A DNA stretch of 14,502 nucleotides from Gemmatimonadota bacterium. Its GTDB lineage: Bacteria; Latescibacterota; UBA2968; UBA8231. The notes beneath the pieces are model-generated. The model searched no databases and was not told the origin of the DNA. It saw only the letters and a program-made list of their open reading frames with translations. The stretch spans positions 1-14,502 of the forward strand of contig JAPOYQ010000680.1 of NCBI GenBank assembly GCA_026706505.1, in the 5' to 3' direction. The translations under genes were made by a program, and so were the position numbers. Shown here piece after piece: positions 244-14,331 of this stretch. Within the stretch, counting starts at the first letter, position 1. Each line of letters opens with the position of its first letter.

Positions 244-891
244 TTAAGCACTAAGGAGTCGAGGCAACGTTGAAATGTCGTCTATAACCGCAATTTTGGG
301 TACTTCGTCAAATTCACTTTTGCTTGTCACACCTGATAGCACCGCAATAAAGGGGACCTTGGCCCGCTCGGCCGTTAACGCATCAATCGTACTGTCGCCA
401 ACGTAAAGTACGTCATTAGCATCCATTTGCATTCTAGAGATAGCGGTTGTTAACGCGCTGGGATGTGGTTTGTGTTCGGCAACATCTTCTCCGCCGATGA
501 TGACGCGGAAGCGATTGGACAGTCCTTCTCTCGCTAGAATCTCCTCAATCCTATAGCGAAATTTCGTCGACGCGATTCCCAAGGCAAAACCCATTTCGAT
601 CAACCGCTCAGTTGTCGCGGGGACGCTATCAAACATAGACGTTAAGTCCGCCATAACCTGATCAGCTCGTTCGACAAAGTTGCTTACAAACAAACTAACA
701 TCCTGATCATTTGTTTGCCCAGTCAAACTCAGGAAGGTATCCCCCAAAGACATACCAATAGTTCGCTTGATTCGCTCGTCGTCGGCCTGGGGCAAATTCA
801 ACCTTTCCAGCGCAAAATTAACACACTCAATGATGCCTTTTGTTGAATCTGCTAGTGTAAGGTCGAAATCAAAAATGATCGCCCGAGCCAT
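244..891 (-). CDS. HAD-superfamily hydrolase (phosphoglycolate-phosphatase-like, subfamily IA)
   Basis: 215 residues when started at ATG 891-889. All four HAD motifs are present. Motif I is FDFDLTLADS (nucleophile D8, acid/base D10). Motif II is the S/T in GIASTK (S108). Motif III is K141 in EHKPHP. Motif IV is VGDSTID (D166, D170). The alpha-helical cap between motifs I and II (about residues 18-95) fits subfamily IA phosphatases, which dephosphorylate small metabolites such as 2-phosphoglycolate; the real substrate is unknown. The frame stays open to 963, but that upstream start lies in the loop of a strong hairpin, and homologues begin just before the FDFD motif. No clear Shine-Dalgarno precedes 891 (only AAAGGGA about 15 nt away). 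Base composition is much lower in GC than its neighbours (bases 301-360: 26/60 G+C; lactonase bases 1321-1380: 42/60), suggesting a separate origin. Confidence 0.88.
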   Translation of the reverse strand: MARAIIFDFDLTLADSTKGIIECVNFALERLNLPQADDERIKRTIGMSLGDTFLSLTGQTNDQDVSLFVSNFVERADQVMADLTSMFDSVPATTERLIEMGFALGIASTKFRYRIEEILAREGLSNRFRVIIGGEDVAEHKPHPSALTTAISRMQMDANDVLYVGDSTIDALTAERAKVPFIAVLSGVTSKSEFDEVPKIAVIDDISTLPRLLSA

Positions 892-941
892 AGCTTGCCG
901 TGCGAATCCCTTTCTCAATACGGTCCGTAGGCATTCAACTA

Positions 942-983
942 CAGGGCGTACAACGCGGTCCAATAGCAGCGTTGTACGCCCTG
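942..983 (-). terminator. Perfect 15-bp stem hairpin between lactonase and HAD genes
   Basis: CAGGGCGTACAACGC at 942-956 is the exact reverse complement of 969-983, with a 12-nt loop (957-968). It starts 11 nt after the lactonase stop codon on the minus strand and lies before the HAD start. The position and strength suit a transcription terminator or 3' mRNA stabiliser of the lactonase transcript. No U-run follows on the minus strand (next bases TAGTTGAATG), so classical intrinsic termination is uncertain. The symmetric arm could alternatively be a protein-binding palindrome or a small dispersed repeat. Confidence 0.55.
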
Positions 984-994
984 CTATCTATCTC

Positions 995-2068
995 CTAAAA
1001 AACCGGAATAAATTTGTGGCACACGGGCGAGACGACTTCGGCCTTGTGGCCGGTGGGCGTGAGCTTGCCGGTGTCTGGATCAATGCGGAAGGTGAAGATG
1101 TCGTCGGTACTGTGGTTGCCGACGATTAGGTAGGTGCCCGTGGGGTCGAGGCCGAAGTTGCGCGGGTTGGCACCGCCGGTTGGCACGATCTCGACAAGTG
1201 CGAGCTGGCCGTTGTCTTGGTCGATAGCATAGACGGCAATGGAGTCGTGGCCGCGATTGGATCCGTAGAGGAAGCGGCCATTGGGGTGGACGTGGATGTC
1301 GGCGGTGTGGCTGACCTCCGCATAGCCGTCGGGCAGCGTCGAGATGGTCTGGATGGTGGCGAGCGTGCCGGCGTCGGCGTCGTAGTCAAACGCCGTGATG
1401 GTGTTGCTCAACTCGTTGATGACGTAAGCCCGTTGGCTGTCGGGGTGGAAGGCGAGGTGGCGCGGGCCGCTGCCAGGGGCGATTTCCGCGGGCGTCTGCG
1501 CGACGAGCTTGCCATTTTCGTGGTCAATCGCATAGATGAGCACCTTGTCGATGCCCAAGTCGGGGGCAAAGGCGTGTTTGTTGTTGGGGGCGACCATAAT
1601 CGAGTGGGCGTGTGGCCCCTCTTGGCGGCCTGGGTTGACCGAAGAACCCTCGTGTTGGACGAAATCCGTAGCCGGGCCGAGCGAGCCATCTTCGCGGATT
1701 GGCAGGATGGCGACGCTGCCGCCGCCGTAGTTGGCGGCTAGCGCGTACTTACCGGCGCGGTCAATGCTGATGTGGCAGGGGCCGGGGCCAACGGTCGATT
1801 CGGTGTTGATGTGGGTGAGGGCTCCGCTCTGTTGGTCAATGGCAAAGGCCGCAATCGCGCCGCCGGGCCGGTCGCCGACCTCGCTGGTCTCGCCGATGGC
1901 GTAGAGGAAGCGGCGGTTGGGCGCGATGTCGAGGAAGGACGGATTGTCAATGCCGCCAATGCTGCTTTGATGAGCGAGCGCACCGGTGGCCATGTCGAGG
2001 CGATAGACGTGGATGCCGTCCTCGTCGCCGCTGGAATAGGTGCCGATATAGACGAGATAGTCACTCAT
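995..2068 (-). CDS. Lactonase family protein (6-phosphogluconolactonase-type seven-bladed beta-propeller)
   Basis: 357 residues from ATG 2068-2066. The start is fixed by an AGGAG (2080-2076) seven bases upstream and by the family-typical opening YLVYIGTYSSGDEDGIHVYRL. Recurrent blade motifs are visible: NPSFLDIAPNRRFLYA, GPCHISIDRAGKYALAANYGGG, EGPHAHS, GSGPRHLAFHPDSQRAYV, ADIHVHPNGRFLYGSNRGHDSIAVY, GANPRNFGLDPTGTYLIVGN. These match the Pgl/YkgB (lactonase, PF10282-type) propeller of about 340-360 residues. The E. coli member hydrolyses 6-phosphogluconolactone, but many relatives act on other lactones or only bind ligands. An in-frame upstream ATG (2149) would add a hydrophobic leader (see findings). 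The gene follows the secreted-protein operon on the same strand after a 165-nt gap. Confidence 0.9.
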   Translation of the reverse strand: MSDYLVYIGTYSSGDEDGIHVYRLDMATGALAHQSSIGGIDNPSFLDIAPNRRFLYAIGETSEVGDRPGGAIAAFAIDQQSGALTHINTESTVGPGPCHISIDRAGKYALAANYGGGSVAILPIREDGSLGPATDFVQHEGSSVNPGRQEGPHAHSIMVAPNNKHAFAPDLGIDKVLIYAIDHENGKLVAQTPAEIAPGSGPRHLAFHPDSQRAYVINELSNTITAFDYDADAGTLATIQTISTLPDGYAEVSHTADIHVHPNGRFLYGSNRGHDSIAVYAIDQDNGQLALVEIVPTGGANPRNFGLDPTGTYLIVGNHSTDDIFTFRIDPDTGKLTPTGHKAEVVSPVCHKFIPVF

Positions 2069-2075
2069 AGTGGAA

Positions 2076-2080
2076 CTCCT
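2076..2080 (-). promoter_or_regulatory. Shine-Dalgarno deciding the lactonase start
   Basis: AGGAG read on the minus strand, seven bases before ATG 2068-2066. It favours the short cytoplasmic form over the upstream in-frame ATG at 2149, which has only GGTGA four bases before it. Confidence 0.6.
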
Positions 2081-2189
2081 TTGAGTTGTGAAGGCGATGG
2101 AAGGGAGGAAGAGAAGCATAGATAACAGGGCATTCGTTACAAACCGCATCGTTTCACCAAAACAGTGTTGAACTTTCATAAGCGACAGA

Positions 2190-2216
2190 CCTAATCCCAT
2201 AAATCCTGCCAATCCC
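2190..2216 (-). repeat. Three imperfect 9-bp units (GGGATTGGC / AGGATTTAT / GGGATTAGG)
   Basis: Minus strand, in the gap between secreted protein B and the lactonase. Three contiguous 9-mers share a (G/A)GGATT core. Similar degenerate GGATT-type short-period repeats are common in intergenic DNA of several uncultured phyla, from memory. No function is evident and it is not coding if the lactonase starts at 2068 or 2149. Confidence 0.4.
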
Positions 2217-2233
2217 GTTAATTTTATTTGGTT

Positions 2234-2791
2234 CTAATAGACAACCGAGATCGCACCCGTGTGCGTTCCTGGCCCCGACTCGGCCCCTAGATCGAGGCGG
2301 TAGAGATACATGCCCGGCGCGACCACGGCCCCCGCCTCGTCGCGAGCCGTCCAAGTGAAGCGATGGCCCGTTGCGGTCGGCGTGGATTCGACCGCAGCGA
2401 TTTGGCGGCCCGCTAGGTCGTAGAGCACGAGCGTGGGGGTCGCCGCGTCTAGCTTGAAGACCACAAAGCGCATGTCGAGCGCGTCGTTGATCCCGTCGCC
2501 GTTGGGCGTGATCACGGGTGAGGCCAGTTCTAGTGCGTCGATGAGTTGGCCGTGCTCGGCTAGTTCGGGTAGCATTACTACCTGAGAGCGGCGCTCGGCT
2601 GGCTCGACCGACTGCCAGAGGCCGGGCCGCTCGCTCAACCCGAGATCGAGGGGAAAAACCGTGGCGTTGTGCAAAACTCGCGTCGTGAAACCCACCCGAA
2701 TCGAGTCCTCGGTCACAATGCGCGGCAGGGCGACCAACAGCGAGTCGCCTCGCTGCTCGACGCGGGCGGGCGCAATTGGCGCAGGGCCGAT
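2234..2791 (-). CDS. Secreted protein B, C-terminal part with FlgD-like/gliding-motility-type C-terminal domain (cut off by adapter artefact)
   Basis: 185 codons open from the inner edge of the adapter block to TAG 2236-2234, in the same frame as the upstream part (2819-4579). An isolated gene caller would start it at 2737 (GTG), but that is internal. The segment RGDSLLVALPRIVTEDSIRVGF aligns with DDGLTVVLPERVTRANNAPLRI of neighbour protein A. The last 80 or so residues hold SPVITPNGDGINDAL, a LVLYDLAGRQIA strand and GMYLYRLDL. This is the TPNGDGxND ... (Y/F)DxxGR ... PGxY(L/V)Y(R) signature of FlgD Ig-like/type IX-like C-terminal domains found on many secreted proteins. Such tails are thought to anchor or sort proteins to the cell surface. 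It is not a separate gene. Confidence 0.85.
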   Translation of the reverse strand: MGPAPIAPARVEQRGDSLLVALPRIVTEDSIRVGFTTRVLHNATVFPLDLGLSERPGLWQSVEPAERRSQVVMLPELAEHGQLIDALELASPVITPNGDGINDALDMRFVVFKLDAATPTLVLYDLAGRQIAAVESTPTATGHRFTWTARDEAGAVVAPGMYLYRLDLGAESGPGTHTGAISVVY

Positions 2792-2831
2792 GTGTAGATC
2801 TCGGTGGTCGCCGTATCATTAAAAAAAAAAA
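2792..2831. other. Assembly artefact: Illumina P5 adapter plus poly-A inside a gene
   Basis: Bases 2792-2820 are the exact reverse complement of the 29-nt Illumina P5 flow-cell adapter (minus strand begins AATGATACGGCGACCACC and ends GATCTACAC), followed on the plus strand by 11 A's (2821-2831). A read that runs through its insert into the adapter and past the molecule end yields exactly P5 complement followed by poly-A. Translated, it gives the familiar contaminant strings FFFNDTATTEIYT and MIRRPPRST in two minus-strand frames. In the gene's own frame it creates TAA TGA (2821-2816). By alignment to neighbour protein A it replaces about 33 native bases. Confidence 0.97.
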
Positions 2832-4579
2832 GTAAAGCGCAATAGGTCGAAACCCGAGTCCTCAGCCTCCATCTGCGGCCACAGCGTATAGGTAAAACGG
2901 GTGTCCTCGTTGGGGATGGCTTGGCGCGGCTCAATGCGGCCCACCGCGCCCTGCAACAGCGCGTCCTCAAACTCGACCGAGAGCGAATGGACCACCGGTG
3001 CCACACTTGGGTCATCGGTGGAGAGGATCATCTCCAGCAGGATGAAGCGGCGCGGGCTTTCCGATTGGAATGCCTCACCCGAAAACTGATAGACGTTGCT
3101 CCATTCCCCCCAATCCTCGCCGACCACGAGCGTCGTATCGACCGGGCCGCGCAGCACCTTGGGCGAACTGTTCCACTTCTCCTCGGTGACCTGTTCGCCG
3201 ATCTTGTTGTAAAATGTATAGACCGGCTCTAGCGAGTTGCCCGAGCGCGAGCGCAGTTGCAGGCGGGTGCCTGCGGCCAACTCGGTATCCCAAGAGAGGT
3301 TTTTGATGACTTTTGGCCGCCCGTCGCCCGAGGTTTGTCCTAAGTCGATGAAGTCCGAGTGCAATACTACTTCGGCGGGATAGCCCGGAGAGAAGAGCAT
3401 GAACTCGGCCCATTTGACGATGCCCCAGCCGGTGTCTCTGATGCCGTGCCAGAAGAAGTAGCGCATCTTGCGCGGCTTGAACATATAGCGAATGTAGAGC
3501 AGGCGGTCGGCGTTGGGATTGATGTGGGTCAGGAGCTCTGTGTAGTCGAACGCATCGGGCACGGGCAGATTGGAACTGAGGCTGCGGGTGCCATCTGAAT
3601 AGAGCACCGTATGGCCCGGGCCGGTGCCGTTGATCGAGAAGCCCACCAAGCCCTCGTCGGGCCGAAAGGAATAGAGGAAGAATTCATCGACGAAGAACAC
3701 CGCCCCCAAATCCACTCCGAACCACACCCCACCCTCTTTCCAGCCGAGGCTGCCATACGAAGAGCCGATTAGGTTGTTGGTGTTCATGTCGGCGTCGAAG
3801 AGATTTTGCGGATCGACTGAGTTGACCCCGTTGACAAATCGACCTCGCTGCATGGTGCCAATGCTGATGTTGTCGCCAATGCCGCGGACTTCGATTTCGG
3901 CCAAGGCCGCGTCCGGAGTCTTTTCTTCTGCCTCAATGCGAATGCGCTGGATCACCCGATAGTTGTTCTTGGCCATCGGGTCGATACCCAAGCCCTCGTC
4001 GAGCTGAAATACGCTGTCGCGAGCGGTGAATCCGAGGGGGATGACGAGTTGGCTGGCCGCGTTGGGCCGGGTCGTGCGGAAGAGAGGTTCCAGCAGCACC
4101 ATGTCGTCTTGCACCGAGATGCGGGTCCCCGTGCTGCCGTACACAGTAAACTGCCGAAAGGGACGCGCGCCCTCGTCGTCGGGAAAAACGAGGCGTATTT
4201 CCCGGGCCAGCACAGCGCGGCCCAAGTCTATCTCAATGGCCCAGTCCTCGACGGCATCCGCCGGGTCTGGACGCCAGAAGGTCTGGGGATCTCCGTCGAT
4301 GATGTACTCTGCATCGGCGGGATTGGAGGTCGCCTCCCAGATGCCGCCTGTAGTTCGTCCGCGACTCTTGCTCTCGTAGGAGAAGCGATGGGCATCGGCG
4401 ACCGCGTTGATGTCCTTGCGGAACTTGACGAGCTGTAGTTGGCCGTTTTCGCCCACTTCAGTTAGGCCGAGGGGCACTTGCCAAGTCGCCCAAGCATCTT
4501 GCCCTTGGAAGGTCAGGGTTTCGCTGCTAACGGCCATGGCAGCCAACGCGACGCAGACGAGCGGAAAAAGAAATCGCAT
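2819..4579 (-). CDS. Secreted protein B, N-terminal part with two F5/8-type C (discoidin-like) domains
   Basis: 586 residues from ATG 4579-4577 to an adapter-made TAA (2821-2819); with 2234-2791 it forms one protein of about 780 residues. A signal peptide is clear: MRFLFPLVCVALAAMAVSS, cleavage near residue 19. GGIWEATSNPADAEYIIDGDPQTFW...DWAIEIDLG (about 79-120, continuing to 185) and NLFDADMNTNN...GGVWFGVDLG (about 259-345) are two discoidin/F5-8C-like carbohydrate-binding beta-sandwiches; a further beta-rich part follows (FIDLGQTSGDGRPKVIKNLSWDTEL...). No catalytic signature is seen. GGGAG (4592-4588) sits 8 nt before ATG 4579 and overlaps the TGA of protein A. The alternative GTG at 4588 has no room for a ribosome site. 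The gap from protein A is 13 nt, so the two are co-transcribed. Export and surface binding are inferred. Confidence 0.86.
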   Translation of the reverse strand: MRFLFPLVCVALAAMAVSSETLTFQGQDAWATWQVPLGLTEVGENGQLQLVKFRKDINAVADAHRFSYESKSRGRTTGGIWEATSNPADAEYIIDGDPQTFWRPDPADAVEDWAIEIDLGRAVLAREIRLVFPDDEGARPFRQFTVYGSTGTRISVQDDMVLLEPLFRTTRPNAASQLVIPLGFTARDSVFQLDEGLGIDPMAKNNYRVIQRIRIEAEEKTPDAALAEIEVRGIGDNISIGTMQRGRFVNGVNSVDPQNLFDADMNTNNLIGSSYGSLGWKEGGVWFGVDLGAVFFVDEFFLYSFRPDEGLVGFSINGTGPGHTVLYSDGTRSLSSNLPVPDAFDYTELLTHINPNADRLLYIRYMFKPRKMRYFFWHGIRDTGWGIVKWAEFMLFSPGYPAEVVLHSDFIDLGQTSGDGRPKVIKNLSWDTELAAGTRLQLRSRSGNSLEPVYTFYNKIGEQVTEEKWNSSPKVLRGPVDTTLVVGEDWGEWSNVYQFSGEAFQSESPRRFILLEMILSTDDPSVAPVVHSLSVEFEDALLQGAVGRIEPRQAIPNEDTRFTYTLWPQMEAEDSGFDLLRFTFFF

Positions 4580-4592
4580 CGTTCCCACTCCC

Positions 4593-6650
4593 TCAGTATG
4601 CTACGCCCACGGGGCGGAGCAAGGCGGCAGCGCGGCGCTCGGATTGCAGGACCACAGAGATTAAGTACACGCCCGGAGGCAGGGCACGGCCCTCTGCGTC
4701 GCGTCCGTCCCAGCGGGCCGTTTGCGGGCCGGCTGTTTGCAGGCCTTGAGACACGGTCGCCACATGGCGCCCGTCGAGCGCATAGACCGCCAATTCGACG
4801 GGCACTTGTTCCGGTAGGCCATAGAGGGAATAGGCCATCCGAAGCTCGTCGTGAACGCCGTCGCCATTGGGCGTCAACACAGGCGTTGAAAAGCGCAAGT
4901 TTTGCACCAAGGCAGGTTGTTGATCCGAAATGCTAAGGACGCGCAGACTGTTAGTGGAGAGCAATTCGCTGGCATCGCCAGAGACGATGGGTTGGGGCAA
5001 GGTCTCGACCTCTGAGTCGGTGACGGTGCCCAAGAACGTAGTGGCCAGTTCAAACACTTCCGCGGCAAAGACGATGCGCAACGGCGCGTTGTTGGCACGG
5101 GTAACGCGCTCAGGTAGAACTACTGTCAGCCCATCGTCCTCTTCGCGGACGGCGGCTGGGTCGGTCGCTTGCCCGCCGACGAGCAACTCTTTGAACGCAG
5201 GCTGGGCACCCGTTTGGATGCGCACTTGGTCGAAGCCGCGCTGATTCCCTCCTGAGAAGGAGGCCGATAGGTCGTATGCAAACTCGACCATTTCGCCTAA
5301 GGCCACCTCGCCGAACCCGTGCGCGGGCCGTGGGTCGTCGAGTGGGGCCACTTCGCCGAGGACGCGCGCCGCCAACAGCGGTGCCCGCTCGACCCACAGC
5401 GAATCCAAGCGCACAAAATCCGCAAAGCGGGTGCTGTGCAAGGTAATGAGCACCTGTATGAAGGAGCCGCTGTCGAGGTTGAGCGGCAGACCCGACTGGG
5501 TCGTGGGCGTTGACCAGAAGGTCCAGTTGTCGCTGTCGTAGGTGATTGCGGCTCGCATTCCAGGACGGGGGCTGCGCTGGACAAAGTCACAGGAGGCGCA
5601 CGTGCGGGCAAACCCCGTGCGGAGATCGTTCTCGTAGCGGGCGCGGGAGACGACCTTTTCCTTGCCAGTGACCGTGTATTCGTGATAGATGTTCGGATCG
5701 TCGTCGCGACCCGTGCGAACCTCGATCTCGGCGAAGGCCCGTGCATCGAGTGTCTCAACGGCTTCGCCAGCGACAAAACGCATCGGCGTGATGCTAAAAA
5801 ATAGCCGACCAAAATTCTGTTCGGCCCCGAGGTCAATGATCTTGGAGCGGTACGTAGCCCGCTTGGGAAAGCCCTCGCCATAGACCTCAAACTCGCTGAT
5901 GGTTCCGAGGAGCGAGCGGGCTTGATTGCCTTGGCCGCCGGATGAGCCGCTAACGCGGTTCCGGGTCAAGGCCGTCTCGTCGATGATGGAGAATTTGCGG
6001 GCCCAGCGGAAGAAGCGCACGTATTGCTGGTCAAAACCAATGCGCACGTCATGGGCAAAATTTTGCGTCGGCTCGGCGACGATCCTCGCGAGGGGCAGCG
6101 GTCCTTTGATGGCGAAAATCTCGCTGTTTTCCTCTTGGATCGAGATTTGGAAGGCCGGGGTCGAGTCCGTGCGCAGCGGCGTGCCGTCGGAGCGAAAGCC
6201 GCCCGAAGGGGTGTGGAAGCCGAAGGTGTGCGCCGGCACGGGCACGGCCAAGTCGATGGTGAAAAACTGCTTGCCAATGCCCTCGGCCTTGGAGGAATTG
6301 TACGTGGTGCTGTCGGCATCGATGAGTGCGACGCCGTTTTCGGTTGGGTCGCCGTTGCCTTCGTTCCACTTCCAGATGCGGGGCCGCTCGCCGTCGATAT
6401 AGCCTAATTCTTTGGGCTGGCGAAAGGTCGTCCAGTTGCTGAGCAGGGAAATGATGTTGACGCCCGGCTCGACGCGCACCGGCTGGATGGCACCAGGGAC
6501 GCGCTCAAAGTCAATCATAATGCTGACCGTGTCTTGGCCGGCCCAAGGCTGGCTGCCGCCGAGTTGCCAAGTAGTAACCTCGGCTTTTAGGGCGGTCGGA
6601 CCCAGAAGCGCGATAGCAACGGTGAGCGCGAAGCTGCGGGTGTTCAGCAT
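4593..6650 (-). CDS. Secreted protein A: F5/8-type domain protein with FlgD-like C-terminal domain
   Basis: 685 residues from ATG 6650-6648, preceded by AGGAG seven bases upstream; the AGG overlaps the dioxygenase stop codon. A signal peptide is visible (MLNTRSFALTVAIALLGPTALKA, cleavage near 23). ALIDADSTTYN...FFTIDLAVPV (about 108-138) opens a discoidin/galactose-binding-like fold. A second beta-rich region follows (SKIIDLGAEQNFGRLFFSI, FAEIEVRTGRDDDPN), with a CASC pair that could bind metal or form a disulfide. The C-terminal 95 residues carry STPVLTPNGDGVHDELRM, VYALDGRHVATV, ARWDGRDAEGRALPPGVYLISV: a FlgD Ig-like/gliding-type C-terminal domain. It shares overall architecture with protein B next door, so the two are probably an ancient tandem duplication or a partner pair. 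No enzymatic motif is recognised. Confidence 0.88.
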   Translation of the reverse strand: MLNTRSFALTVAIALLGPTALKAEVTTWQLGGSQPWAGQDTVSIMIDFERVPGAIQPVRVEPGVNIISLLSNWTTFRQPKELGYIDGERPRIWKWNEGNGDPTENGVALIDADSTTYNSSKAEGIGKQFFTIDLAVPVPAHTFGFHTPSGGFRSDGTPLRTDSTPAFQISIQEENSEIFAIKGPLPLARIVAEPTQNFAHDVRIGFDQQYVRFFRWARKFSIIDETALTRNRVSGSSGGQGNQARSLLGTISEFEVYGEGFPKRATYRSKIIDLGAEQNFGRLFFSITPMRFVAGEAVETLDARAFAEIEVRTGRDDDPNIYHEYTVTGKEKVVSRARYENDLRTGFARTCASCDFVQRSPRPGMRAAITYDSDNWTFWSTPTTQSGLPLNLDSGSFIQVLITLHSTRFADFVRLDSLWVERAPLLAARVLGEVAPLDDPRPAHGFGEVALGEMVEFAYDLSASFSGGNQRGFDQVRIQTGAQPAFKELLVGGQATDPAAVREEDDGLTVVLPERVTRANNAPLRIVFAAEVFELATTFLGTVTDSEVETLPQPIVSGDASELLSTNSLRVLSISDQQPALVQNLRFSTPVLTPNGDGVHDELRMAYSLYGLPEQVPVELAVYALDGRHVATVSQGLQTAGPQTARWDGRDAEGRALPPGVYLISVVLQSERRAAALLRPVGVAY

Positions 6651-6660
6651 GTCCTGTCTC

Positions 6661-7401
6661 CTAGCGAAAGTGCACGTCGGCGGCATGCAGGGCACCCGGG
6701 CCGTTTTGCATCCGCATTAGCTGGCGCTGACGCAGGCTCAAGCTGTCCCACCACTCGGACGGGAAGCCGTCGTGCGGATCGAGTTGGAAGACCAACATGT
6801 GCTTTCTATAATGGCCGAAGAGGGCGTGGCGGTTGCGGTCGCCGGTGTTGGCACCGCCGCCGTGCCAGCATTGGCCGTTGAAGACGATCACCGAGCCAGC
6901 CGAGGCGGTAGGCTGCACCTCGTGCTGGACTATAAATCCCTCCGGGGGCGCGGCGAGGCCGCTCTTGTGTGAGCCGGGCACCACGCGAGTGCCGCCGATT
7001 TCGGGGCTAAAGTCGTCGAGCATCCACACCGTATTCATCATCACCGGCGTGTCCATGTTGAGCATATAGGCGGGGATGTCGCTGTGCAGGTCTTGGAAGC
7101 CGTCGCCGGGGCGGACGATGCGCGAGTTGAGGCTGCCCAAAATCAGCGAGGGCTCGAGAAAGTGCTCGAGGATGGGCAAGACGCGAGGGTGGTCGATGCA
7201 CTGGTGGAAGATGCGATCCATGACCGGGAGGTTGGCTACGTGGCGGGCCGCGCCGCGATGGGTGTGTTCGGTGCCGTGCTCTTGTTCGCAGCGGATCAGG
7301 GCCTGGCGCATGGCCGCGGCCGTGTCGGAGTCGAGAATGTTTTCGAGCAGGGTGAAGCCGTAGATTTCGATTTCTTGGATGGCTTGTTCGAGTTCGTTCA
7401 T
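6661..7401 (-). CDS. Phytanoyl-CoA dioxygenase (PhyH) family Fe(II)/2-oxoglutarate oxygenase
   Basis: 246 residues, the normal length for bacterial PhyH-family enzymes. ATG 7401-7399 is preceded by AAGGA at seven bases. The facial triad is visible as H106-x-D108 in LHSD and H180 in CWHGGGANTG; an arginine (R189 or R191) follows at the place that binds 2-oxoglutarate carboxylate. GGTRVVPGSHKSG (136-148) is the conserved strand-turn before the distal histidine. Such enzymes hydroxylate diverse small molecules using O2 and 2-oxoglutarate; the substrate cannot be told. It is the first gene of an operon with two secreted proteins, ten bases ahead of protein A. It has no signal peptide, so it acts in the cytoplasm. 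PhyH paralogues are numerous in Poribacteria/Latescibacterota-type genomes. Confidence 0.92.
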   Translation of the reverse strand: MNELEQAIQEIEIYGFTLLENILDSDTAAAMRQALIRCEQEHGTEHTHRGAARHVANLPVMDRIFHQCIDHPRVLPILEHFLEPSLILGSLNSRIVRPGDGFQDLHSDIPAYMLNMDTPVMMNTVWMLDDFSPEIGGTRVVPGSHKSGLAAPPEGFIVQHEVQPTASAGSVIVFNGQCWHGGGANTGDRNRHALFGHYRKHMLVFQLDPHDGFPSEWWDSLSLRQRQLMRMQNGPGALHAADVHFR

Positions 7402-7426
7402 AGGGGTTTCCTTTACAAGAGCTACT

Positions 7427-7456
7427 AAAATAAGCCCGCAAAGTTCGCTTCTGCAA
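7427..7456 (-). promoter_or_regulatory. Possible promoter of the PhyH operon
   Basis: Minus strand: TTGCAG (7456-7451), 18 bases, TATTTT (7432-7427), in the 65-nt gap between the TauE stop and the PhyH start. Both boxes match the sigma-70 consensus only partly (3/6 and 4/6). This is the only AT-rich spot in the gap, so it is offered as a weak candidate. Confidence 0.22.
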
Positions 7457-7466
7457 CCGACTGCCT

Positions 7467-8186
7467 CTAAGCCGCATAGAGCGCATCTGCGATCATGCGC
7501 AAACAGAGAAGCGTGATCGCGATCCTAAAGACCTTGCGGAAGAGGTTTTCAGAAACCCGGTCGCGCAAGCGCGTCCCGCACCACGAGCCGAGCGCCGCCG
7601 CGCCAATCATCCCGGCGATGAGCGGCAAGTAGGGCGCAAAGGCGAAGCCGACAAAGCCGAAGACCAAAATTTTGCACAGGTGGGTGACGGTCATGATCGT
7701 GCCGTGGGTAATGACCAAGCGGTCCTTGGGCAAACCCGCGCTGGCTAAGAAGGCACCGCTCAGGGGTCCGGCGACGCCGACGAAGAGGGCGAGGAAGGTC
7801 TGAAGGGCACCGAAAATGGCAAAGTGGCCGGGGAGGCGAAAAGCGCGGCTGGGCACGGGAACCCAGATGACGAGGAGGATGAAGACGCCCAGGTACAGGG
7901 GGAGATCGTCGAAGCTAAAGTCGCCGACGACCTGCGCTCCCACGACAGCGCCGAGGACTGAGCCGCCTGAGAAAGGCCAAAAGATGCGCCATTCGATGTG
8001 GCGCAGGCCAAAGAATACGCGGCTGGCGTTGGAGGCTAGCTGCACGGCCCCGTGGACGGGGATGATGGCCGCGGCGGGCAGCAAGCCCGGCATGACCGAG
8101 ATCAGCGCGATACCGCCGCCCACGCCGATGATGGCGGTAAAGGTCGAGGTCAGGAAGGAGACGCCGATCAGGAAAAAGGGATCCAT
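7467..8186 (-). CDS. TauE/SafE-type sulfite/organosulfur exporter family membrane protein (TSUP)
   Basis: 239 residues and strongly hydrophobic, with about seven membrane segments. The first repeat opens with PFFLIGVSFLTSTFTAIIGVGGGIALI, carrying the GxGGG motif of the TSUP family. A second half-repeat begins near FGALQTFLALFVGVAGPLSGAFLASAGL (GxxGP-x3-G), followed by THGTIMTVTHLCKILVFGFVGFAF. Length and inverted two-repeat layout fit TauE/SafE, proposed exporters of sulfite, sulfoacetate or other anions across the inner membrane. ATG 8186-8184 directly follows the TGA (8189-8187) of the PLP enzyme with no gap and no good Shine-Dalgarno, implying translational coupling. Sitting after a predicted D-cysteine desulfhydrase, export of a sulfur product is a reasonable but unproven role. 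Confidence 0.9.
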   Translation of the reverse strand: MDPFFLIGVSFLTSTFTAIIGVGGGIALISVMPGLLPAAAIIPVHGAVQLASNASRVFFGLRHIEWRIFWPFSGGSVLGAVVGAQVVGDFSFDDLPLYLGVFILLVIWVPVPSRAFRLPGHFAIFGALQTFLALFVGVAGPLSGAFLASAGLPKDRLVITHGTIMTVTHLCKILVFGFVGFAFAPYLPLIAGMIGAAALGSWCGTRLRDRVSENLFRKVFRIAITLLCLRMIADALYAA

Positions 8187-9212
8187 TCAGTCGGCGAGCA
8201 CTTCTTGGGCATAGGCGAACAGAGCGGGGTTGCCGCCGGTGTGCAGGAAGATCGCCTCGCCGTCGAGCCTGCCGTTGCGTGCGTGGGCAAAAAGGCCGGC
8301 GAGGGCCTTGCTGGTGTACACGGGATCGAGGAGAATGCCCTCTTTGCGCGCCAAAGTGCGCAAGGCATCCAAGCCGGCGGGGGTGGGGATACCGTACCCC
8401 TCGCCGGCGAAGGAATTGTCGTTGTCAAAGTCGGCAGCGTTCATGGCAATGTCGAGGCCGAGGCGGCGGGCGGCTTGGTTGGCAATGGTGGCCATGGCCT
8501 CGTGGTGGCTGTCGGGACCGGGGAAAGGGCTGAAGCCGCGGACTTTGATCGGCGACTCAATATAGGCTAGGCCCAAAGCTAAACCGGCTTGGGTCGTGTC
8601 GAGGGCGCAGAGGTAGAGATAGGACGGGTTGATGCCCTGCTCTTGGCATTGGTGGGCAATCTCCACGCCCGCTTCGGCATAGGCGATAGCATCGAGATCG
8701 ATCGCATCTTCGCGGCGTGGCCAGTACGCGTTTTTTCCCTGTGCGGAAAGCTCTTCGACCTTGGCTCGTATGGAGTCTTGTTGGGCGTGCCAATCGCCTT
8801 CCGCTAGGACGGTGATCTGTGCGCCGAGCAGGTGCTGTAGCAGGTTGTTGCCCTGCGATTCAGTGTGGTCGATTGCGCGCACCGGCCTGAGGAGCAGGTG
8901 CAGTTCCAAGTCTAGTTTGGCGCAGGCCGCGGCGAGTTGGCGGCAGTAGTTGGACTGCACTGCCGCGCCCGAGACGATGGTGTCGGCCCCTTTGGCCAAG
9001 GCGTCGGCTAGGGCAAACTCGAACATCCGCGTCTTGTTGCCGCCAAAGGCCAGACCGTTCAGGTCGTCGCGCTTGATGTAGAGCGCAGGGCTGTCGAGGT
9101 GGGCGGTCAGGCGCGGCAGCGGCTCCAGCGGGGTGGGGCGGATTGAAGCTAGCTGGACGCGGGGTAGCTTGGCGATGGCTGCGGTGAGGGCGTTCGCTTT
9201 GGCGGAGTTCAT
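8187..9212 (-). CDS. D-cysteine desulfhydrase / ACC deaminase-family PLP enzyme
   Basis: 341 residues from ATG 9212-9210; AAGGA lies nine bases upstream. The motif YIKRDDLNGLAFGGNKTR holds the PLP-binding lysine (K60). SGAAVQSNYCRQLAAACAKL (81-100) is the substrate-carboxylate loop of the ACC-deaminase/DcyD group of fold-type II enzymes. HTGG (PLP-phosphate/pyridine region) appears near the C-terminus in AIFLHTGGNPALF. Family members cleave D-cysteine to pyruvate, sulfide and ammonia, or deaminate 1-aminocyclopropane-1-carboxylate; sequence alone does not choose between them, and the substrate could be another D-amino acid. Its start overlaps the TGA of the Gfo/Idh gene by ATGA (9212-9209), and it abuts the exporter gene. 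The longer reading to 9275 would overlap the oxidoreductase gene and is unlikely. Confidence 0.87.
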   Translation of the reverse strand: MNSAKANALTAAIAKLPRVQLASIRPTPLEPLPRLTAHLDSPALYIKRDDLNGLAFGGNKTRMFEFALADALAKGADTIVSGAAVQSNYCRQLAAACAKLDLELHLLLRPVRAIDHTESQGNNLLQHLLGAQITVLAEGDWHAQQDSIRAKVEELSAQGKNAYWPRREDAIDLDAIAYAEAGVEIAHQCQEQGINPSYLYLCALDTTQAGLALGLAYIESPIKVRGFSPFPGPDSHHEAMATIANQAARRLGLDIAMNAADFDNDNSFAGEGYGIPTPAGLDALRTLARKEGILLDPVYTSKALAGLFAHARNGRLDGEAIFLHTGGNPALFAYAQEVLAD

Positions 9213-10309
9213 GTGGTGCATTCCTTTGGCCAACCTTGGGGCGGCAGTTGGGAGAGGCGGTTTTGGCGGTGGCACTCTTCAATGACGGCGATCTGCACGC
9301 GCACCTGTTGCGGCGTGATCTCGGGTTGGGCTGCTTCCCGCAACGCGGCGAATACGCCGTCGTAATAGGCGTTGGACATATAGGTAAATGCGTCTTGCTC
9401 GTCCTCGTTGGGGGCCCAGGACCGCTCGATCATTTTTAGCTCCTCGCGGCAATAGCTCGGGCCGGGCAGTGGGCTGCGGATGAGCATTTGCTCGGGCGCC
9501 TTTTGCGGATCGTAGTAGCGCCAAGCCAGCCCCGCAGGGCCGCCGGAGAGGCCGCCGTGCTCGCCGTGGACGGTGTACATGGGCTGAGGGAAGGGGGTGC
9601 AGGAGGAGATTTCCATATCGATGACAGGTTTGTCTTTGGTGCGCAGTAGAATTTTGACGTAGTCCTCGGCGTCGCCGAAGGTGTTGGCGCGATCCATGGC
9701 GCAGAGGATTTGCTCCGGTATTTTAAAGTCGAGCAGGCGCATGGCTTGATCCATGGGGTGCGGGCCGGTGTTGAGTAGATTGCCGCCTCGGTATTCCTGC
9801 ACGGTCTGCCAGTCCCAGCGGCGGGCGAAACCGCTGAAGGAGATCGAGACTTGGACAATGCGGCCGAGGACGCCTGAGTCAATAACTTGGAGCAGCTTTT
9901 GAAATTGGGGCGCGTTGCGCGATTGCTGGAAGGGCAGGAGCAGGCTATCGGCCTTGTGGGCGGCGGCGATCATGGTGTCGAGTTCGGCCACGCTCCAGGC
10001 GAGGGGTTTTTCGCAGATGGTGTGGTGGCCGGTGTTGAGGGAATCGATGGTGGCTTGAGGATGGAGGTGGCTGGGCAGGGCGTTGACGACTAGGTCGATG
10101 TCGCCGCGCGCGAGAATGTCGCGGTAGTCGGCGTACGCGTCGCAACCCATTTCGCTTTGGGCGCGCTGGCGGCGGTCGTCAAGGAGGTCGGCGATGGCGA
10201 CTATTTGGTATTTGTGCGGGGCGGTTTTGAAGTAGCGGCAGTGGATGTTGAGGCCGGAGCGGCCTTGGCCGAGAACGGCGACGCGGATGGGTTCTTTTTT
10301 CGTAGGCAA
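9209..10309 (-). CDS. Gfo/Idh/MocA family NAD(P)-dependent oxidoreductase
   Basis: 366 residues from TTG 10309-10307, chosen because GGAG (10322-10319) lies nine bases upstream and the Rossmann strand IRVAVLGQGRSG (GxGxxG at 14-19) follows within seven codons. EKP at 100-102 (ICEKPLAWS) is the dinucleotide/catalytic lysine motif. GGNLLNTGPHPMDQAM carries the G-x-H-x2-D active-site residues (H184, D187). Family members oxidise or reduce sugars, inositols and sugar acids, or cleave glycosidic bonds by transient oxidation. The C-terminal alpha/beta domain is complete, ending at TGA 9211-9209. The ORF can be read up to TTG 10369, but that TTG lies in a perfect TTGACA hexamer that looks like a promoter box and has no ribosome site. 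First gene of a coupled trio with the PLP enzyme and exporter. Confidence 0.9.
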   Translation of the reverse strand: MPTKKEPIRVAVLGQGRSGLNIHCRYFKTAPHKYQIVAIADLLDDRRQRAQSEMGCDAYADYRDILARGDIDLVVNALPSHLHPQATIDSLNTGHHTICEKPLAWSVAELDTMIAAAHKADSLLLPFQQSRNAPQFQKLLQVIDSGVLGRIVQVSISFSGFARRWDWQTVQEYRGGNLLNTGPHPMDQAMRLLDFKIPEQILCAMDRANTFGDAEDYVKILLRTKDKPVIDMEISSCTPFPQPMYTVHGEHGGLSGGPAGLAWRYYDPQKAPEQMLIRSPLPGPSYCREELKMIERSWAPNEDEQDAFTYMSNAYYDGVFAALREAAQPEITPQQVRVQIAVIEECHRQNRLSQLPPQGWPKECTT

Positions 10310-10318
10310 TTTGGGTGG

Positions 10319-10322
10319 CTCC
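10319..10322 (-). promoter_or_regulatory. Shine-Dalgarno deciding the oxidoreductase TTG start
   Basis: GGAG on the minus strand, nine bases before TTG 10309-10307. No ATG or GTG exists between here and the Rossmann strand, and no comparable site precedes the outer TTG at 10369. Confidence 0.5.
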
Positions 10323-10340
10323 GTATAGAGATGGGCGTTT

Positions 10341-10369
10341 ATGTTGGGGGTTGAGCGGAAGGGTGTCAA
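10341..10369 (-). promoter_or_regulatory. Candidate promoter for the oxidoreductase-desulfhydrase-exporter operon
   Basis: Minus strand: perfect -35 hexamer TTGACA (10369-10364), 17 bases, then CAACAT (10346-10341; 3 of 6 to TATAAT, including A2, A5 and T6). Transcription would begin near 10333 and leave a short leader holding the GGAG site. It lies in the 81-nt divergent intergenic region, so control could be shared with the cupin operon. The weak -10 keeps confidence low. Confidence 0.32.
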
Positions 10370-10390
10370 GGTTTGTGAAGGGGGATTGGG

Positions 10391-11191
10391 ATGCGTAGTT
10401 TAGCGGGATGGCAGAGGATGATAGAGAAAAGCATGAAACACGTCCGTCTTGATGAGTTAGACCAAGAAGGCTGCCCGATCTTTGCGGGGTTGCGGCCAGA
10501 GACGCCGTGGGAGGCATTCGATTATTGGGTATTGGCACCGGGGGAACCGTTCCCGGTGGAAGGCTCAGGAATAGCTTGTGAACAGGGCTATGTATTTACA
10601 GGTGGGCCGGTGGAATTGACCGTGGGGCAGCAGCCAATAGAAAGCGGAGAAGGATCCGGGTTTATCATCGAACCTACCGGATGCGATCACGTGCTGAAAA
10701 ACTTGACCGATGTATCTGTGAACGTGCTACGCGTGCGCGTCGCGATGGACTTGGATTCAGAGGCGCAGCAAGGTGTACAGCCCAAGGCTGGCACCTTTGA
10801 CGAGCAAGCGCTAAAGTGGCGCGACGCAATTCACGGCGGCTGCGGGCAGATCGCCACTCGGCACGTGCTCTCGCCTGATGACTTCAACAGCGATTGGACC
10901 TTTCTCGACCACGCCATCCTCGGCGCTGGGGGATCGGTGGGGTATCACTATCACGACTTCCTCGAAGAGAGCTTTGTAGTATTAAAGGGACAAGGACTGA
11001 TGACTATTGACGACGAGACCTTTGCGGTGGGGCCGGGGTCGGTTACTTGGCAGGGCATTGGGCAGGGGCACGGCATCTACAATCCCGGGCCGGAAAAACT
11101 GGAGTTCGTCCGGATTGCCGTGAAACAAGCATGCGAAGAGTACACTACCATCGACTTGCACGACGATTTGTCGGCACGCAGGCCGACTTGA
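10391..11191 (+). CDS. Bicupin domain protein
   Basis: 266 residues from ATG 10391, which has AAGGGGG six bases upstream; ATG 10433 (MKHVRLDEL, 252 residues) is a rival start that fits the domain edge better but has a poorer ribosome site. Two cupin barrels are visible. The first (about 45-120) lacks metal ligands: CEQGYVFTGGPVEL and EPTGCDHVLKN hold only a lone histidine. The second (about 170-245) has the full metal motif: GYHYHDFLEES (H186, H188, E192) and GQGHGIYN (H227). Cupins of this type include sugar isomerases, dioxygenases and ligand-binding regulators; no finer call is possible. It is the first gene of the plus-strand operon, 12 bases before the DUF3500 gene. GC is somewhat lower than its neighbours (10561-10620: 30/60). 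Confidence 0.82.
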   Translation: MRSLAGWQRMIEKSMKHVRLDELDQEGCPIFAGLRPETPWEAFDYWVLAPGEPFPVEGSGIACEQGYVFTGGPVELTVGQQPIESGEGSGFIIEPTGCDHVLKNLTDVSVNVLRVRVAMDLDSEAQQGVQPKAGTFDEQALKWRDAIHGGCGQIATRHVLSPDDFNSDWTFLDHAILGAGGSVGYHYHDFLEESFVVLKGQGLMTIDDETFAVGPGSVTWQGIGQGHGIYNPGPEKLEFVRIAVKQACEEYTTIDLHDDLSARRPT

Positions 11192-11203
11192 GAAAGGAAG
11201 ATC

Positions 11204-12172
11204 ATGGACCAAACTAATACAGTACAACGCATGGCCGAGGCCGCCAGCAATTTTCTCGCGTCCTTAGATGCGGCCGAGCGGCAGAAGGCGGTGATCGACT
11301 TTGCCGACAGCGCGGAGCGCGAAAACTGGCACTACATTCCGAGGGAGCGCGCCGGATTGCCGCTAAAGGAAATGGACCAGCGGCAGCGGCAGCTAGCGCA
11401 CGCGCTAGTGGCGACCGGAGTCAGCGCGTCGGGGTACGAAAAAGTCTCGACGATCATTTCGCTGGAGCCGATACTGGCCGAATTGGAGGGGGCCGGGCGG
11501 CGCTTCCAGCGCGATCCCGAGCTGTACTACGTGAGCATTTTCGGCGAACCAGGTGGCGACGCGCCCTGGGGCTGGCGCTTTGAGGGCCATCACGTCTCGC
11601 TCAACCACACAATAGTACAAGGTCGGCTGGGATCGACGCCGTTGTTTTTTGGCTCAAACCCCGCTGAGGTGCGCCACGGCGAGCAAACGGGACTGCGGGC
11701 TTTGCGGGAGGAAGAGGACTTGGGGCGGCAGCTTTTGCACGAGTTGGACGGCGAACAGAAAGCAGTGGCCATCGTCCGTGCCGAAGCCCCAAGGGACATT
11801 CTCACGACCAACGTGCCCCATGTGCGCGGCGAGGTCGAGCCGGAGGGGTTGGGCAGTGCGGATATGAGCGCGGCGCAGCGCCAGATCTTGGACGCCTTGA
11901 TCGAAGTGTACGTACGGCGCCTGCCCGAAGCGCTGGCCGAAGCCGAATGGGAGCGACTCGGAGCGGCATATTTGCGGGCGGCGCACTTTGCTTGGGCCGG
12001 CGCAGAGGAACGCGGGGGGCCGCACTACTACCGGGTACAGGGGCCGGGTTTCCTAGCCGAGTACGACAACACCCAAAACGACGCCAACCACATCCACGCG
12101 GTCTGGCGCGACCTGCACAACGATTTCGGCGAAGATCTGCTCAAGCGGCACTATCGGCAGAACCATAGATAG
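11204..12172 (+). CDS. DUF3500 family protein
   Basis: 322 residues. ATG 11204 is preceded by AAGGA at five bases. The sequence follows the DUF3500 pattern from end to end: RMAEAASNFLASLDAAERQ, ERENWHYIPRERAGLPLKEM (39-57), LYYVSIFG (107-114), PWGWRFEGHHVSLNHT (121-136), TPLFFGSNPAEVRHG, APRDILTTN, HFAWAG (261-266), HYYRVQGPGFLAEYDNTQND (274-293) and NHIHAVWRD (295-303). Conserved W42, H43, H129, H130, H135 and the Y-D-N-x-Q-N-D-x-N-H-I-H stretch look like a metal- or substrate-binding set, but the family has no established biochemical function that I know of. No signal peptide is seen, so it is probably cytoplasmic here. It sits between a cupin and a GH13 enzyme in one operon. Confidence 0.93.
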   Translation: MDQTNTVQRMAEAASNFLASLDAAERQKAVIDFADSAERENWHYIPRERAGLPLKEMDQRQRQLAHALVATGVSASGYEKVSTIISLEPILAELEGAGRRFQRDPELYYVSIFGEPGGDAPWGWRFEGHHVSLNHTIVQGRLGSTPLFFGSNPAEVRHGEQTGLRALREEEDLGRQLLHELDGEQKAVAIVRAEAPRDILTTNVPHVRGEVEPEGLGSADMSAAQRQILDALIEVYVRRLPEALAEAEWERLGAAYLRAAHFAWAGAEERGGPHYYRVQGPGFLAEYDNTQNDANHIHAVWRDLHNDFGEDLLKRHYRQNHR

Positions 12173-12204
12173 TTGTAAGAATTGGACCAATTCCTAATAC
12201 TTTT

Positions 12205-12208
12205 GGAG
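12205..12208 (+). promoter_or_regulatory. Shine-Dalgarno deciding the GH13 TTG start
   Basis: GGAG, eight bases before TTG 12217. No ATG or GTG in this frame occurs until about residue 62, well inside the N-terminal domain, so the rare TTG is the likely initiator. Confidence 0.55.
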
Positions 12209-12216
12209 AGAATTCT

Positions 12217-14331
12217 TTGACTGTTACGGCCGTCTTCGGTTTACGCGCCGCGTTCTACGAACAATTGCACTGCCGCTACCAGCGCCGCGAGTTCGATAAC
12301 TGGCAGGTCTGGGGCGGCAACCTGACCATTGAAATCGACGGTCGGGTTTGCGAGCCGCCCCTAGCTAGGGCTTATATCGAACCTGGCAAGACGGCTGCCA
12401 TGGCCCAGGTGCGCTGCGAGCTTTTCGTCGCCGCCGTTGACCCGCGCGAAGTTCAGCCGGGGGATGTGGATGCGCGGCTGTGGACAGATGCTAACGGGAC
12501 AAATGATTACGTGGAGATGCGGCTGCTTGTCGATGCGGAAGGCGCTCCCGTCCTCGCCGGCAACAACCTCGTCTTTGAGTCAGCAGCTTTCGCGCTTGAG
12601 CGCACAGGCACCTTCAACTACGCGGTAGAGTTTTCCGCTGACAGCTACGCCGAGGCCGGGCGCAAGGAGTGGATCAGCCTCAACGATTTGGCTGAAAACC
12701 GCGACGGGGTCGTCGTCGTCAGCCCGGAGTGGGTGCGCAAGGGACCGACGATCTCCGAGGTGTGCGTGCGCAAGGTCGGAGCCGAGGTCGAGGGAGGCTG
12801 CTTCCGCTCCGGCCGGCTCGCCGAACTGGCGCGGCGCTTAGAAGACATACCTGCCGATGTGATCTACTTATTGCCCTTCTTCCGTCCGGGTTTTGTAGAC
12901 CTGCACACCGGCGCGGATGTGCGCAAGGGTGCCCTCGGCAGCGTCTATGCGGTACAGGACTTTTTCCAGGTTGATCCCGAGCTGGTTTCGCCGACTGAGG
13001 AAGTGGATTGGGAGGCACTGGTGGCGGAAGGTTTCGTGCTCCCAAACGAGATGGAAGGTCTCGCCGGGCTGTCAGCGGCCCAAGTGGAAAAGGCACTTGG
13101 CCGCGACGCCTTCGTCCAGCTAGTCGGTCGCGCTGAGTTGCGGGTACTGACTAGAAAGGCACACGCCCTCGGCAAGAAGGTCATCTTCGACTTAGTCCTG
13201 ATGCAGAGTAGCCGCGACTGTCCGCTGATCGCCGAGCATCCCGAGTGGTATCTGTGCGACGAGCGCGGTGTGCCGCAAATCCACCAGATCGCTTGGCTGG
13301 TCTATTCGGACGTGGCGCTCTTCGACTTGGTTTACAATCAGCCGTTGCAAGAGTACCTGCTGGAGATTGCCCCATATTGGATTGAGCAATGCGGATTCGA
13401 TGGGGTGCGCATCGACGCCAGTCAGACCATTGACCGGCCCTTCCTCAAAAAGCTCAAGAACCGCATTCAAGCTGTCGCACCCGAGGCGTTGGTGTTGGGC
13501 GAGACGCTGTGCCCGCTGGTAGAAGCAGTGGACGTCCCAACAGATGCGATCTACGCGCTCTTAGTTGACTTTCACTGCGACGTCGAGCACGCCCAACCCC
13601 TCATCGATTTCCTAGAAGAGATGCATCGCACCTTCGCGCCCGGCACCGTGGCCATGGCCTACTTTGAAAACCACGACAGCCCGCGCGCCACCCAAGTGTG
13701 GCACGAGCGGTTCCGGGAACTCTTGCACTGCGACGAGCAGGCGCGGGACTACTGGCAGGGCCTCACCTGTCCCATCCAGCCAAGAGACCGAGCGTTGCTG
13801 ATGGCCCTGCTCAAGAATTTGCAGGCCGCCTTGATCGACTGTTCGGCCGGCTCGGCCGCTAGGTGCAATCTGACGCGGGGTTTGGAGTTGGGCAGCGAGT
13901 GGGGTGAAGAAGCGCGCACCGACTTTGAAAACGAGACCCTCCTGCATTTCGACTGGGCCGACCGCGAACCGCACGCCAGCCTAGCGAGGGCCTACGAGCG
14001 TCTCTGCGCACTGCAAAAGGAATGGCCGGAATTTTGCGATGGAGAGGTGTACTTCCACCGCAACGAATTTGCTGGCGGCGACCCGGACGACCGCATTCTG
14101 GCGTACGTGCGCTATACTGAGCGAGGTGCGCTATTGGTGGCGCACAACTTCGATCCACGCACCGTGCGGCAGGCTTCCTACCACTTCGATTACCTGCCGC
14201 AGTCGCCCACATCGCGCCAAAAGTGCTTCGACACGTACGAAGCTCTTGCGATCGAGGCTATACCCGTCAGCGACGAGATCTCGGAGGTCAGCCTCATGCC
14301 ATTGCAGACGCAGGTGTGGCGACTTTACTGA
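12217..14331 (+). CDS. GH13 (alpha-amylase clan) enzyme, GlgE/maltosyltransferase-reminiscent
   Basis: 704 residues from TTG 12217. Residues about 25-140 form a beta-sandwich N-domain (WQVWGGNLTIEIDG...TGTFNYAVEF). The (beta/alpha)8 barrel runs from about 195 to 560: ADVIYLLPFFRPG (strand 2), SVYAVQDFFQVDPEL, KKVIFDLVL (strand 3), GFDGVRIDASQT (nucleophile D400), ALVLGETL (acid/base E429), YFENHDSPRA (stabiliser D487). A C-terminal beta domain follows. The usual D-x-V-x-NH of region I is replaced by DLVLMQSSRDCPLIAEHPEWYL, closely like the QCSPDHPW...EHPEWF block of GlgE. The 29-residue spacing of nucleophile to acid/base also equals GlgE as I recall it (D394/E423 in Streptomyces). It may be a glycosyltransferase or phosphorolytic enzyme and not a hydrolase. 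It follows DUF3500 after 44 bases and precedes a TIM-barrel gene. Confidence 0.84.
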   Translation: MTVTAVFGLRAAFYEQLHCRYQRREFDNWQVWGGNLTIEIDGRVCEPPLARAYIEPGKTAAMAQVRCELFVAAVDPREVQPGDVDARLWTDANGTNDYVEMRLLVDAEGAPVLAGNNLVFESAAFALERTGTFNYAVEFSADSYAEAGRKEWISLNDLAENRDGVVVVSPEWVRKGPTISEVCVRKVGAEVEGGCFRSGRLAELARRLEDIPADVIYLLPFFRPGFVDLHTGADVRKGALGSVYAVQDFFQVDPELVSPTEEVDWEALVAEGFVLPNEMEGLAGLSAAQVEKALGRDAFVQLVGRAELRVLTRKAHALGKKVIFDLVLMQSSRDCPLIAEHPEWYLCDERGVPQIHQIAWLVYSDVALFDLVYNQPLQEYLLEIAPYWIEQCGFDGVRIDASQTIDRPFLKKLKNRIQAVAPEALVLGETLCPLVEAVDVPTDAIYALLVDFHCDVEHAQPLIDFLEEMHRTFAPGTVAMAYFENHDSPRATQVWHERFRELLHCDEQARDYWQGLTCPIQPRDRALLMALLKNLQAALIDCSAGSAARCNLTRGLELGSEWGEEARTDFENETLLHFDWADREPHASLARAYERLCALQKEWPEFCDGEVYFHRNEFAGGDPDDRILAYVRYTERGALLVAHNFDPRTVRQASYHFDYLPQSPTSRQKCFDTYEALAIEAIPVSDEISEVSLMPLQTQVWRLY

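What the first reader, a model, noticed from the sequence alone, without database searches (positions are those of the whole stretch)
2792..2831. Illumina P5 adapter and poly-A embedded in the contig
The 29 bases at 2792-2820 are an exact P5 adapter complement, followed by 11 A's. It breaks a gene, creates two tandem stops and generates database-contaminant peptides (FFFNDTATTEIYT, MIRRPPRST). Anyone annotating the window would otherwise report a pseudogene or a novel slippery element. The join also warns that the contig may be mis-joined here.
Basis: partly seen in the sequence, partly recalled or inferred. Interest (0 to 1): 0.8.

Follow-up and report, generated by a model that had tools for sequence, protein, structure and literature searches.

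The report
Sequencing-chip primer stamped into a gene
A 40-base piece of an Illumina sequencing primer and its anchor has overwritten, base for base, a piece of an ordinary bacterial gene in this contig; it is a laboratory artefact and not biology, but it seems to follow a predictable rule that also corrupts other published genomes.

Summary
Observation confirmed: 2792-2820 is the exact reverse complement of Illumina P5 (recalled oligo) and 2821-2831 is A11. It breaks one minus-strand gene (2234-4588).

Nothing was inserted and no mis-join is seen. In six of 11 same-genus genomes searched, the stretch is present at equal length (341 = 341 bases), so 40 bases replace 40. The window is collinear with its nearest genome.

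At the junction all six read GTGTAG[C/T]TC, 8 of 9 bases of P5's 3' end. I infer that the surface-bound P5 oligo (T-linker plus P5) misprimed inside the insert: reads run native, P5 complement, A10, then native again in register.

The signature recurs: 28 of 28 relatives of a viral contig, 106 of 106 scored uracil permeases, five XerC/D proteins, an isolate scaffold (junction only) and, with P7, two published Klebsiella phage genomes at one site. One relative of L132 keeps register but not the junction match.

Biologically not a real feature; the sequence-directed substitution is the part worth keeping. Raw reads were not available.

The parts
2792..2820 (-). P5 oligo sequence (29 of 29; reads 5'->3' on the minus strand)
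   Evidence: exact match
2821..2831 (-). T11 on the minus strand, read as the T10 linker of the surface oligo plus one base (inferred)
   Evidence: A-run mode of 10 after P5 in other assemblies; T10-P5 surface design in PMC11123353, one passage
2792..2800 (+). junction where six same-genus genomes read GTGTAG[C/T]TC, 8 of 9 bases of the complement of P5's 3' end
   Evidence: four on the query strand, two readable in reverse complement
2819..4588 (-). 5' piece of the broken gene, 589 aa, F5/8 type C domain
   Evidence: 29.1 bits, cut-off 28.2
2234..2791 (-). 3' piece of the same gene in the same frame; CHU_C type IX secretion signal domain in its ORF 2234-2737
   Evidence: 31.3 bits, cut-off 27
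2154..2819 (-). spurious ORF beginning MIRRPPRST inside the adapter
2713..3015 (-). spurious ORF crossing the adapter as FFFNDTATTEIYT

Best explanation
A sequencing artefact, not DNA of the organism. SHOWN: P5 complement plus A11 stands in place of exactly 40 native bases inside one gene, with both flanks in register; the native sequence at the junction resembles the 3' end of P5; other loci share these properties. INFERRED: during cluster generation, or re-synthesis before read 2, the surface-bound oligo (T-linker plus P5) primed inside the library insert at a site matching its 3' end and gave short strands anchored there. Sequencing toward the surface reads the native flank, then P5 complement, then the A10 of the linker. 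There the short strands end, and full-length strands of the same cluster (or the mate, if reads were merged) supply native sequence again in register. Because sequence sets the site, several reads carry the same error and the assembler accepts it.
For: Equal length in six genomes, 341 = 341, and 1001 = 1001 in G001; junction match 8 of 9; the only one of 32,972 positions in the orthologous 16.5-kb segment of G001 that meets three match criteria together. L141: 28 of 28 relatives have 39 native bases there and match 7-9 of 9. L071: native copy in the same scaffold shares 12 bases with P5 complement. L076: 106 of 106 scored relatives have the same length, 102 of 106 read VDL like the junk. L072 and four database XerC/D proteins carry the junk at the TTEIYTH motif. 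L138 in register with two RmlA chains. P7 counterpart at one site in phages Marfa and EI, where three relatives share 12-13 bases with P7 complement. A9-A10 precede poly-G in L160 and L186, so the As are template. Of 216 occurrences with inner adapter 3 are internal; of 21 without, 13 are.
Against: No raw reads. L132's only relative matches the junction at just 3 of 9 bases (counted by eye). Five positions in the G001 segment have a 6-base anchored match and only this one is known to be hit, so the match alone is not enough. L054 has A7 and no common frame. 7 of the 13 internal direct loci were not compared with relatives, and L071 cannot show register. Marfa and EI both bear labels of one centre, so they may not be independent.
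Confidence: 0.8

Rival explanations
1. Ordinary adapter read-through from short inserts: adapter-bearing reads make a dead end that the assembler or a gap-filler bridged to the far flank.
For: P5 complement followed by As is what read-through ends in; 216 of 237 public occurrences are of that kind.
Against: No inner adapter or index before P5 here. Such cases lie near an end of the fetched stretch in 213 of 216. An inner-adapter case, phage HMD-P3, is 109 bases longer than its nearest relatives, not in register. Exact register and a junction match would be coincidences.
Confidence: 0.1
2. Mispriming by the P5 PCR primer during library amplification, with the gap to the far flank closed later by software.
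For: Explains the direct junction and the 3'-end match.
Against: Does not explain why native sequence resumes in exact register after the linker-length A run in the window, L141 and L076.
Confidence: 0.08
3. A real mutation, pseudogene or slippery element of the organism.
For: Two tandem stops and an A11 run inside a gene.
Against: 29 of 29 identity to P5; the six genomes that hold the stretch lack it; P5 complement plus A6 at 120 or more places in genome contigs (capped) and P5 complement at 110 in viral contigs.
Confidence: 0.005

Closest known systems
Adapter contamination of microbial assemblies (Moeller et al. 2024, PMC11536531; part 1 of 3 of the text read)
   Same: Illumina oligo sequence built into a published assembly; harms annotation and contiguity.
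   Different: Described as concentrated at contig ends and beside inner adapters; here internal, without inner adapter, replacing native bases in register at a site that resembles the oligo's 3' end.
Index swapping on patterned flow cells (PMC5941783; title and start of abstract seen in a listing)
   Same: Also an error introduced on the sequencer, tied there to the amplification chemistry.
   Different: Concerns sample assignment, not the insert sequence.

Membership tests
Adapter read-through contamination | exact Illumina oligo sequence | tested here: met
Adapter read-through contamination | inner adapter (TruSeq or Nextera) between insert and P5 | tested here: not met
   none; native flank directly before P5 complement
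Adapter read-through contamination | lies at a contig end | tested here: not met
   2,791 and 11,671 bases from the window's ends
Surface-oligo mispriming with in-register substitution (proposed) | direct junction of native sequence and oligo | tested here: met
Surface-oligo mispriming with in-register substitution (proposed) | linker-length A run after the oligo | tested here: met
   A11; mode 10 in other assemblies
Surface-oligo mispriming with in-register substitution (proposed) | equal length to native copies | tested here: met
   six genomes, 341 = 341
Surface-oligo mispriming with in-register substitution (proposed) | native junction matches the oligo's 3' end | tested here: met
   8 of 9 in six genomes
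Surface-oligo mispriming with in-register substitution (proposed) | recurs at the same site in another library | tested here: inconclusive
   a G009 contig ends 11 bases past the junction, far flank not found; met for P7 in Marfa and EI, which may share a centre
Surface-oligo mispriming with in-register substitution (proposed) | confined to reads toward the P5 surface, with mixed base calls over the block | not testable with these tools
   no raw reads
Pseudogene or slippery element | present in close relatives' DNA | tested here: not met
   absent from the six genomes that hold the stretch

The most novel reading that the evidence does not exclude
Illumina surface oligos P5 and P7 misprime on inserts at sites that match their 3' ends, so short-read assemblies carry predictable 34-40-base in-register substitutions. 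Because conserved protein motifs encode such matches (XerC/D TTEIYTH and uracil-permease VDL for P5), the same conserved genes are struck repeatedly in unrelated organisms. Public databases would then hold recurrent false pseudogenes and split genes that end-trimming does not remove, at places computable in advance from the genome.
Probability: 0.65. Interest if true: 0.5.

Novelty: not a real feature. Interest (0 to 1): 0.33.

Why it matters
The gene is not a pseudogene, and the contig need not be distrusted at this point. More widely, internal direct substitutions would escape filters that look for inner adapters or only at contig ends. They split or hide conserved genes in reference records: in phage EI the portal gene is annotated as two, and in Marfa's RefSeq record no gene is annotated over that stretch. 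The rule found here (direct junction, linker-length A run, 3'-end match, register kept) makes them recognisable and, if the mechanism is right, predictable.

Tried and rejected
Mis-join: not supported, the window is collinear with G001. A product about 7 bases shorter: not supported. Pseudogene or slippery element: rejected by the six genomes without it. The As as absence of signal: unlikely, since A9-A10 precede poly-G in L160 and L186.

Led nowhere: gapped patterns for L132, L138 and L195 and for P7 locus L335 found only the loci themselves. No P5rc+A10 match in 20,395 E. coli records by megablast; no P5rc+A6 in 64 genomes of the phylum. G009 showed no close match to the far flank (best 68-74%), so its contig break stays only suggestive. 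Phage records TAC1, HMD-P3 and Pd_22F proved to be of the inner-adapter class. P7 loci L281 and L287 were not followed.

Results that needed a second look: the frame screen called 5 of 12 loci 'same' (L076, L108, L113, L132, L141) and 7 'different'. It takes the longest open frame on each side and called the window itself different although its gene's frame is open on both sides, so I do not rest on that tally. The first sorting of P5 rows (29 of 237 without inner adapter) was replaced by a wider motif list (21), which moved 8 rows to the inner class. Against E. coli UraA, L076 shows a 2-residue gap beside the junk; close relatives show none (where 14 of the 120 listed proteins did not fit the search expression and were not scored; 8,000 passed the threshold). 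The identities printed for G008 and G003 compare opposite strands and are void.

Literature: nine searches of one CC-licensed library listed no paper whose title or shown abstract describes direct, in-register P5/P7 substitution. Apart from part 1 of 3 of PMC11536531 and one passage of PMC11123353, only listings were seen, so absence from print is not established.

Full report
What is there. Window 2792-2820 is the exact reverse complement of the Illumina P5 oligo (sequence recalled) and 2821-2831 is a run of 11 As, the only homopolymer of 8 or more bases in the window. Expected exact occurrences are about 8e-14; 200 shuffles gave none even with 3 mismatches. The block lies in a minus-strand gene. 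The piece 4588-2819 (589 aa) carries an F5/8 type C domain just above its cut-off, and the ORF 2234-2737 in the downstream piece a CHU_C type IX secretion signal. Both pieces are in one frame, interrupted by FFF and two stops. The neighbouring gene 4593-6695 ends in a FlgD_ig domain, with CHU_C below its cut-off. The peptides MIRRPPRST and FFFNDTATTEIYT start or cross spurious ORFs.

It replaces, it does not insert. The window's own assembly is not held. The nearest genome, G001, aligns 1001 bases to 1001. The 40-base tiles on either side of the block are 32 and 40 of 40 identical; the block itself aligns at 21 of 42 columns with compensating gaps. In a search of 11 genomes of the genus, six (G001, G003, G004, G005, G008, G010) align over the whole query at 86-90%, each 341 bases to 341. 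Of the other five, G006 gives a diverged match (68%, 337 to 337), G009 only the near flank, and G002, G007 and G011 partial matches at 72-78%. Four of the six were printed on the query strand: the block matches at 18-19 of 40 positions and the next 159 bases at 152-157. The other two were printed on the reverse strand, so their identities are void, but the same junction motif is readable in reverse complement. The whole window is collinear with G001 (253-11175 at 92.9%, 11203-14502 at 90.8%). I see no mis-join and expect no shorter product.

The junction is not random. Where P5 complement begins, all six genomes read GTGTAG[C/T]TC, 8 of 9 bases of the complement of P5's 3' end. In the orthologous 16.5-kb segment of G001, both strands, 5 of 32,972 positions match 8 of 9, 5 have a 6-base anchored match, 11 match at least 11 of 15, and only this one meets all three. 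A contig of G009 ends 11 bases past the same junction, and no close match to the far flank was found in that genome: suggestive only.

Two classes of P5 in public assemblies. Scans returned 120 stretches of genome contigs (capped; pattern with A6) and 110 of viral contigs, 237 occurrences in all. With inner TruSeq or Nextera sequence before P5 there are 216: 213 within 200 bases of an end of the fetched stretch and 3 internal. Without it there are 21: 13 internal and 8 near an end (with a narrower motif list, had 29 without). The A run peaks at 10 (35 of the 125 rows with at least 20 further bases). In L160 and L186 an A9-A10 run is followed by poly-G, the no-signal call of two-colour instruments (recalled), so the As are template. 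A T10 linker before P5 on a chip surface is described in PMC11123353 (one passage read); that Illumina's own oligos have it is recalled.

The window's class tested elsewhere. L141: 28 of 28 relatives have exactly 39 bases in place of P5rc+A10 and match 7-9 of the first 9; the nearest (96% flank identity) matches 9 of 9. The search pattern fixed both flank words and allowed 25-55 bases between them. L071, titled as a strain's scaffold: flank, P5rc, A6, five Ns, then the flank again followed by native sequence that shares 12 bases with P5rc. L076, a uracil permease: 15 residues between two anchors, as in 106 of 106 relatives that fitted the expression (14 of the 120 listed did not); 102 of 106 read VDL where P5rc also encodes VDL. 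L138, RmlA: no gap at the junk in the two alignments shown. L072, XerC/D: ungapped over the junk in the three alignments shown. A search with 40 residues around it returned 129 proteins, 120 listed; 4 of the 120 carry NDTATTEIYT at the same place (register judged by eye), and 83 of the other 116 read D[V/I]ATTEIYTH. So P5's 3' end is nearly spelled by a conserved XerC/D motif. L132: one relative besides itself; 20 residues against 20 around the junk, but only 3 of 9 junction bases match (counted by eye). L054 fits poorly (A7, no common frame). L097, L099, L108, L113, L129 and L195 were not compared with relatives (a pattern for L195 found only itself). In all, 5 of the 13 internal direct loci were tested for register against relatives and 5 of 5 keep it; the window is a sixth.

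P7 does the same. One, L314, is Klebsiella phage Marfa. A second genome, phage EI, carries P7rc plus A10 at the same position, while three relatives (HMGUkp2, Biddle_MM4, AmPh_EK29) share 12-13 bases with P7rc and then differ from it. Both affected records bear CPT labels, so one centre is likely and the two may not be independent. In EI the portal gene is annotated as two; in Marfa's RefSeq record no gene is annotated there. Intact copies exist in relatives. The other three P7 loci were not resolved.

Mechanism. Shown: direct junction, equal length, match to the oligo's 3' end, linker-length A run, recurrence. Inferred: the grafted oligo primes inside the insert on the flow cell; shortened strands yield P5 complement and linker and stop; full-length strands of the same cluster, or the mate in read merging, then supply native sequence in step. 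P7 cases suggest that the event is not limited to re-synthesis of the P5 side. An in-register return is hard to get from library-PCR mispriming or gap filling. By contrast an inner-adapter case, phage HMD-P3, is 109 bases longer than its nearest relatives over the same stretch (1233 against 1124).

Known or new. Adapter contamination of assemblies is known: PMC11536531 (part 1 of 3 read) finds it concentrated at contig ends and beside inner adapters. Nine searches of one library listed nothing recognisable on the direct, in-register kind; most subscription papers and all bioRxiv preprints are outside that library.

Verdict. As biology this is not a real feature. As a sequencing artefact it is better defined and more interesting than reported: sequence-directed, length-preserving and recurrent in conserved genes.

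Noticed in passing
L314 (MN044033 / NC_048798) and L400 (MN106245.1): Klebsiella phages Marfa and EI both carry P7 complement plus A11/A10 at the same place in the portal gene; annotated as two genes in EI, not annotated in Marfa's RefSeq record.
   Followed up: yes
P0003, P0006, P0070, P0076; L072 2244-3158: Five XerC/D recombinases carry P5-derived residues just before the TTEIYTH motif, in register: a likely hot spot.
   Followed up: partly
phage records, e.g. KX965989 / NC_048651 (AP45), L403 = PQ462667, L402 = MK170160, L404 = MZ092003: 19 of 50,697 public phage records match P5 complement plus As; the three fetched are inner-adapter carry-over, and in HMD-P3 the endonuclease gene is annotated as two.
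   Followed up: partly
L250 (G004:C23 start): The contig of a same-genus genome begins with an error-laden stretch resembling P5, an index and Nextera sequence.
   Followed up: no
L054, minus strand, near 3484-3520 of the locus: P5 complement with A7 whose flanks share no reading frame; does not fit either class well.
   Followed up: no
window 2234-6695, minus strand: Two adjacent genes for large proteins with CHU_C- or FlgD_ig-like C-terminal ends; G001 holds several diverged copies of the first (67-75% DNA identity), so a multi-copy family.
   Followed up: no
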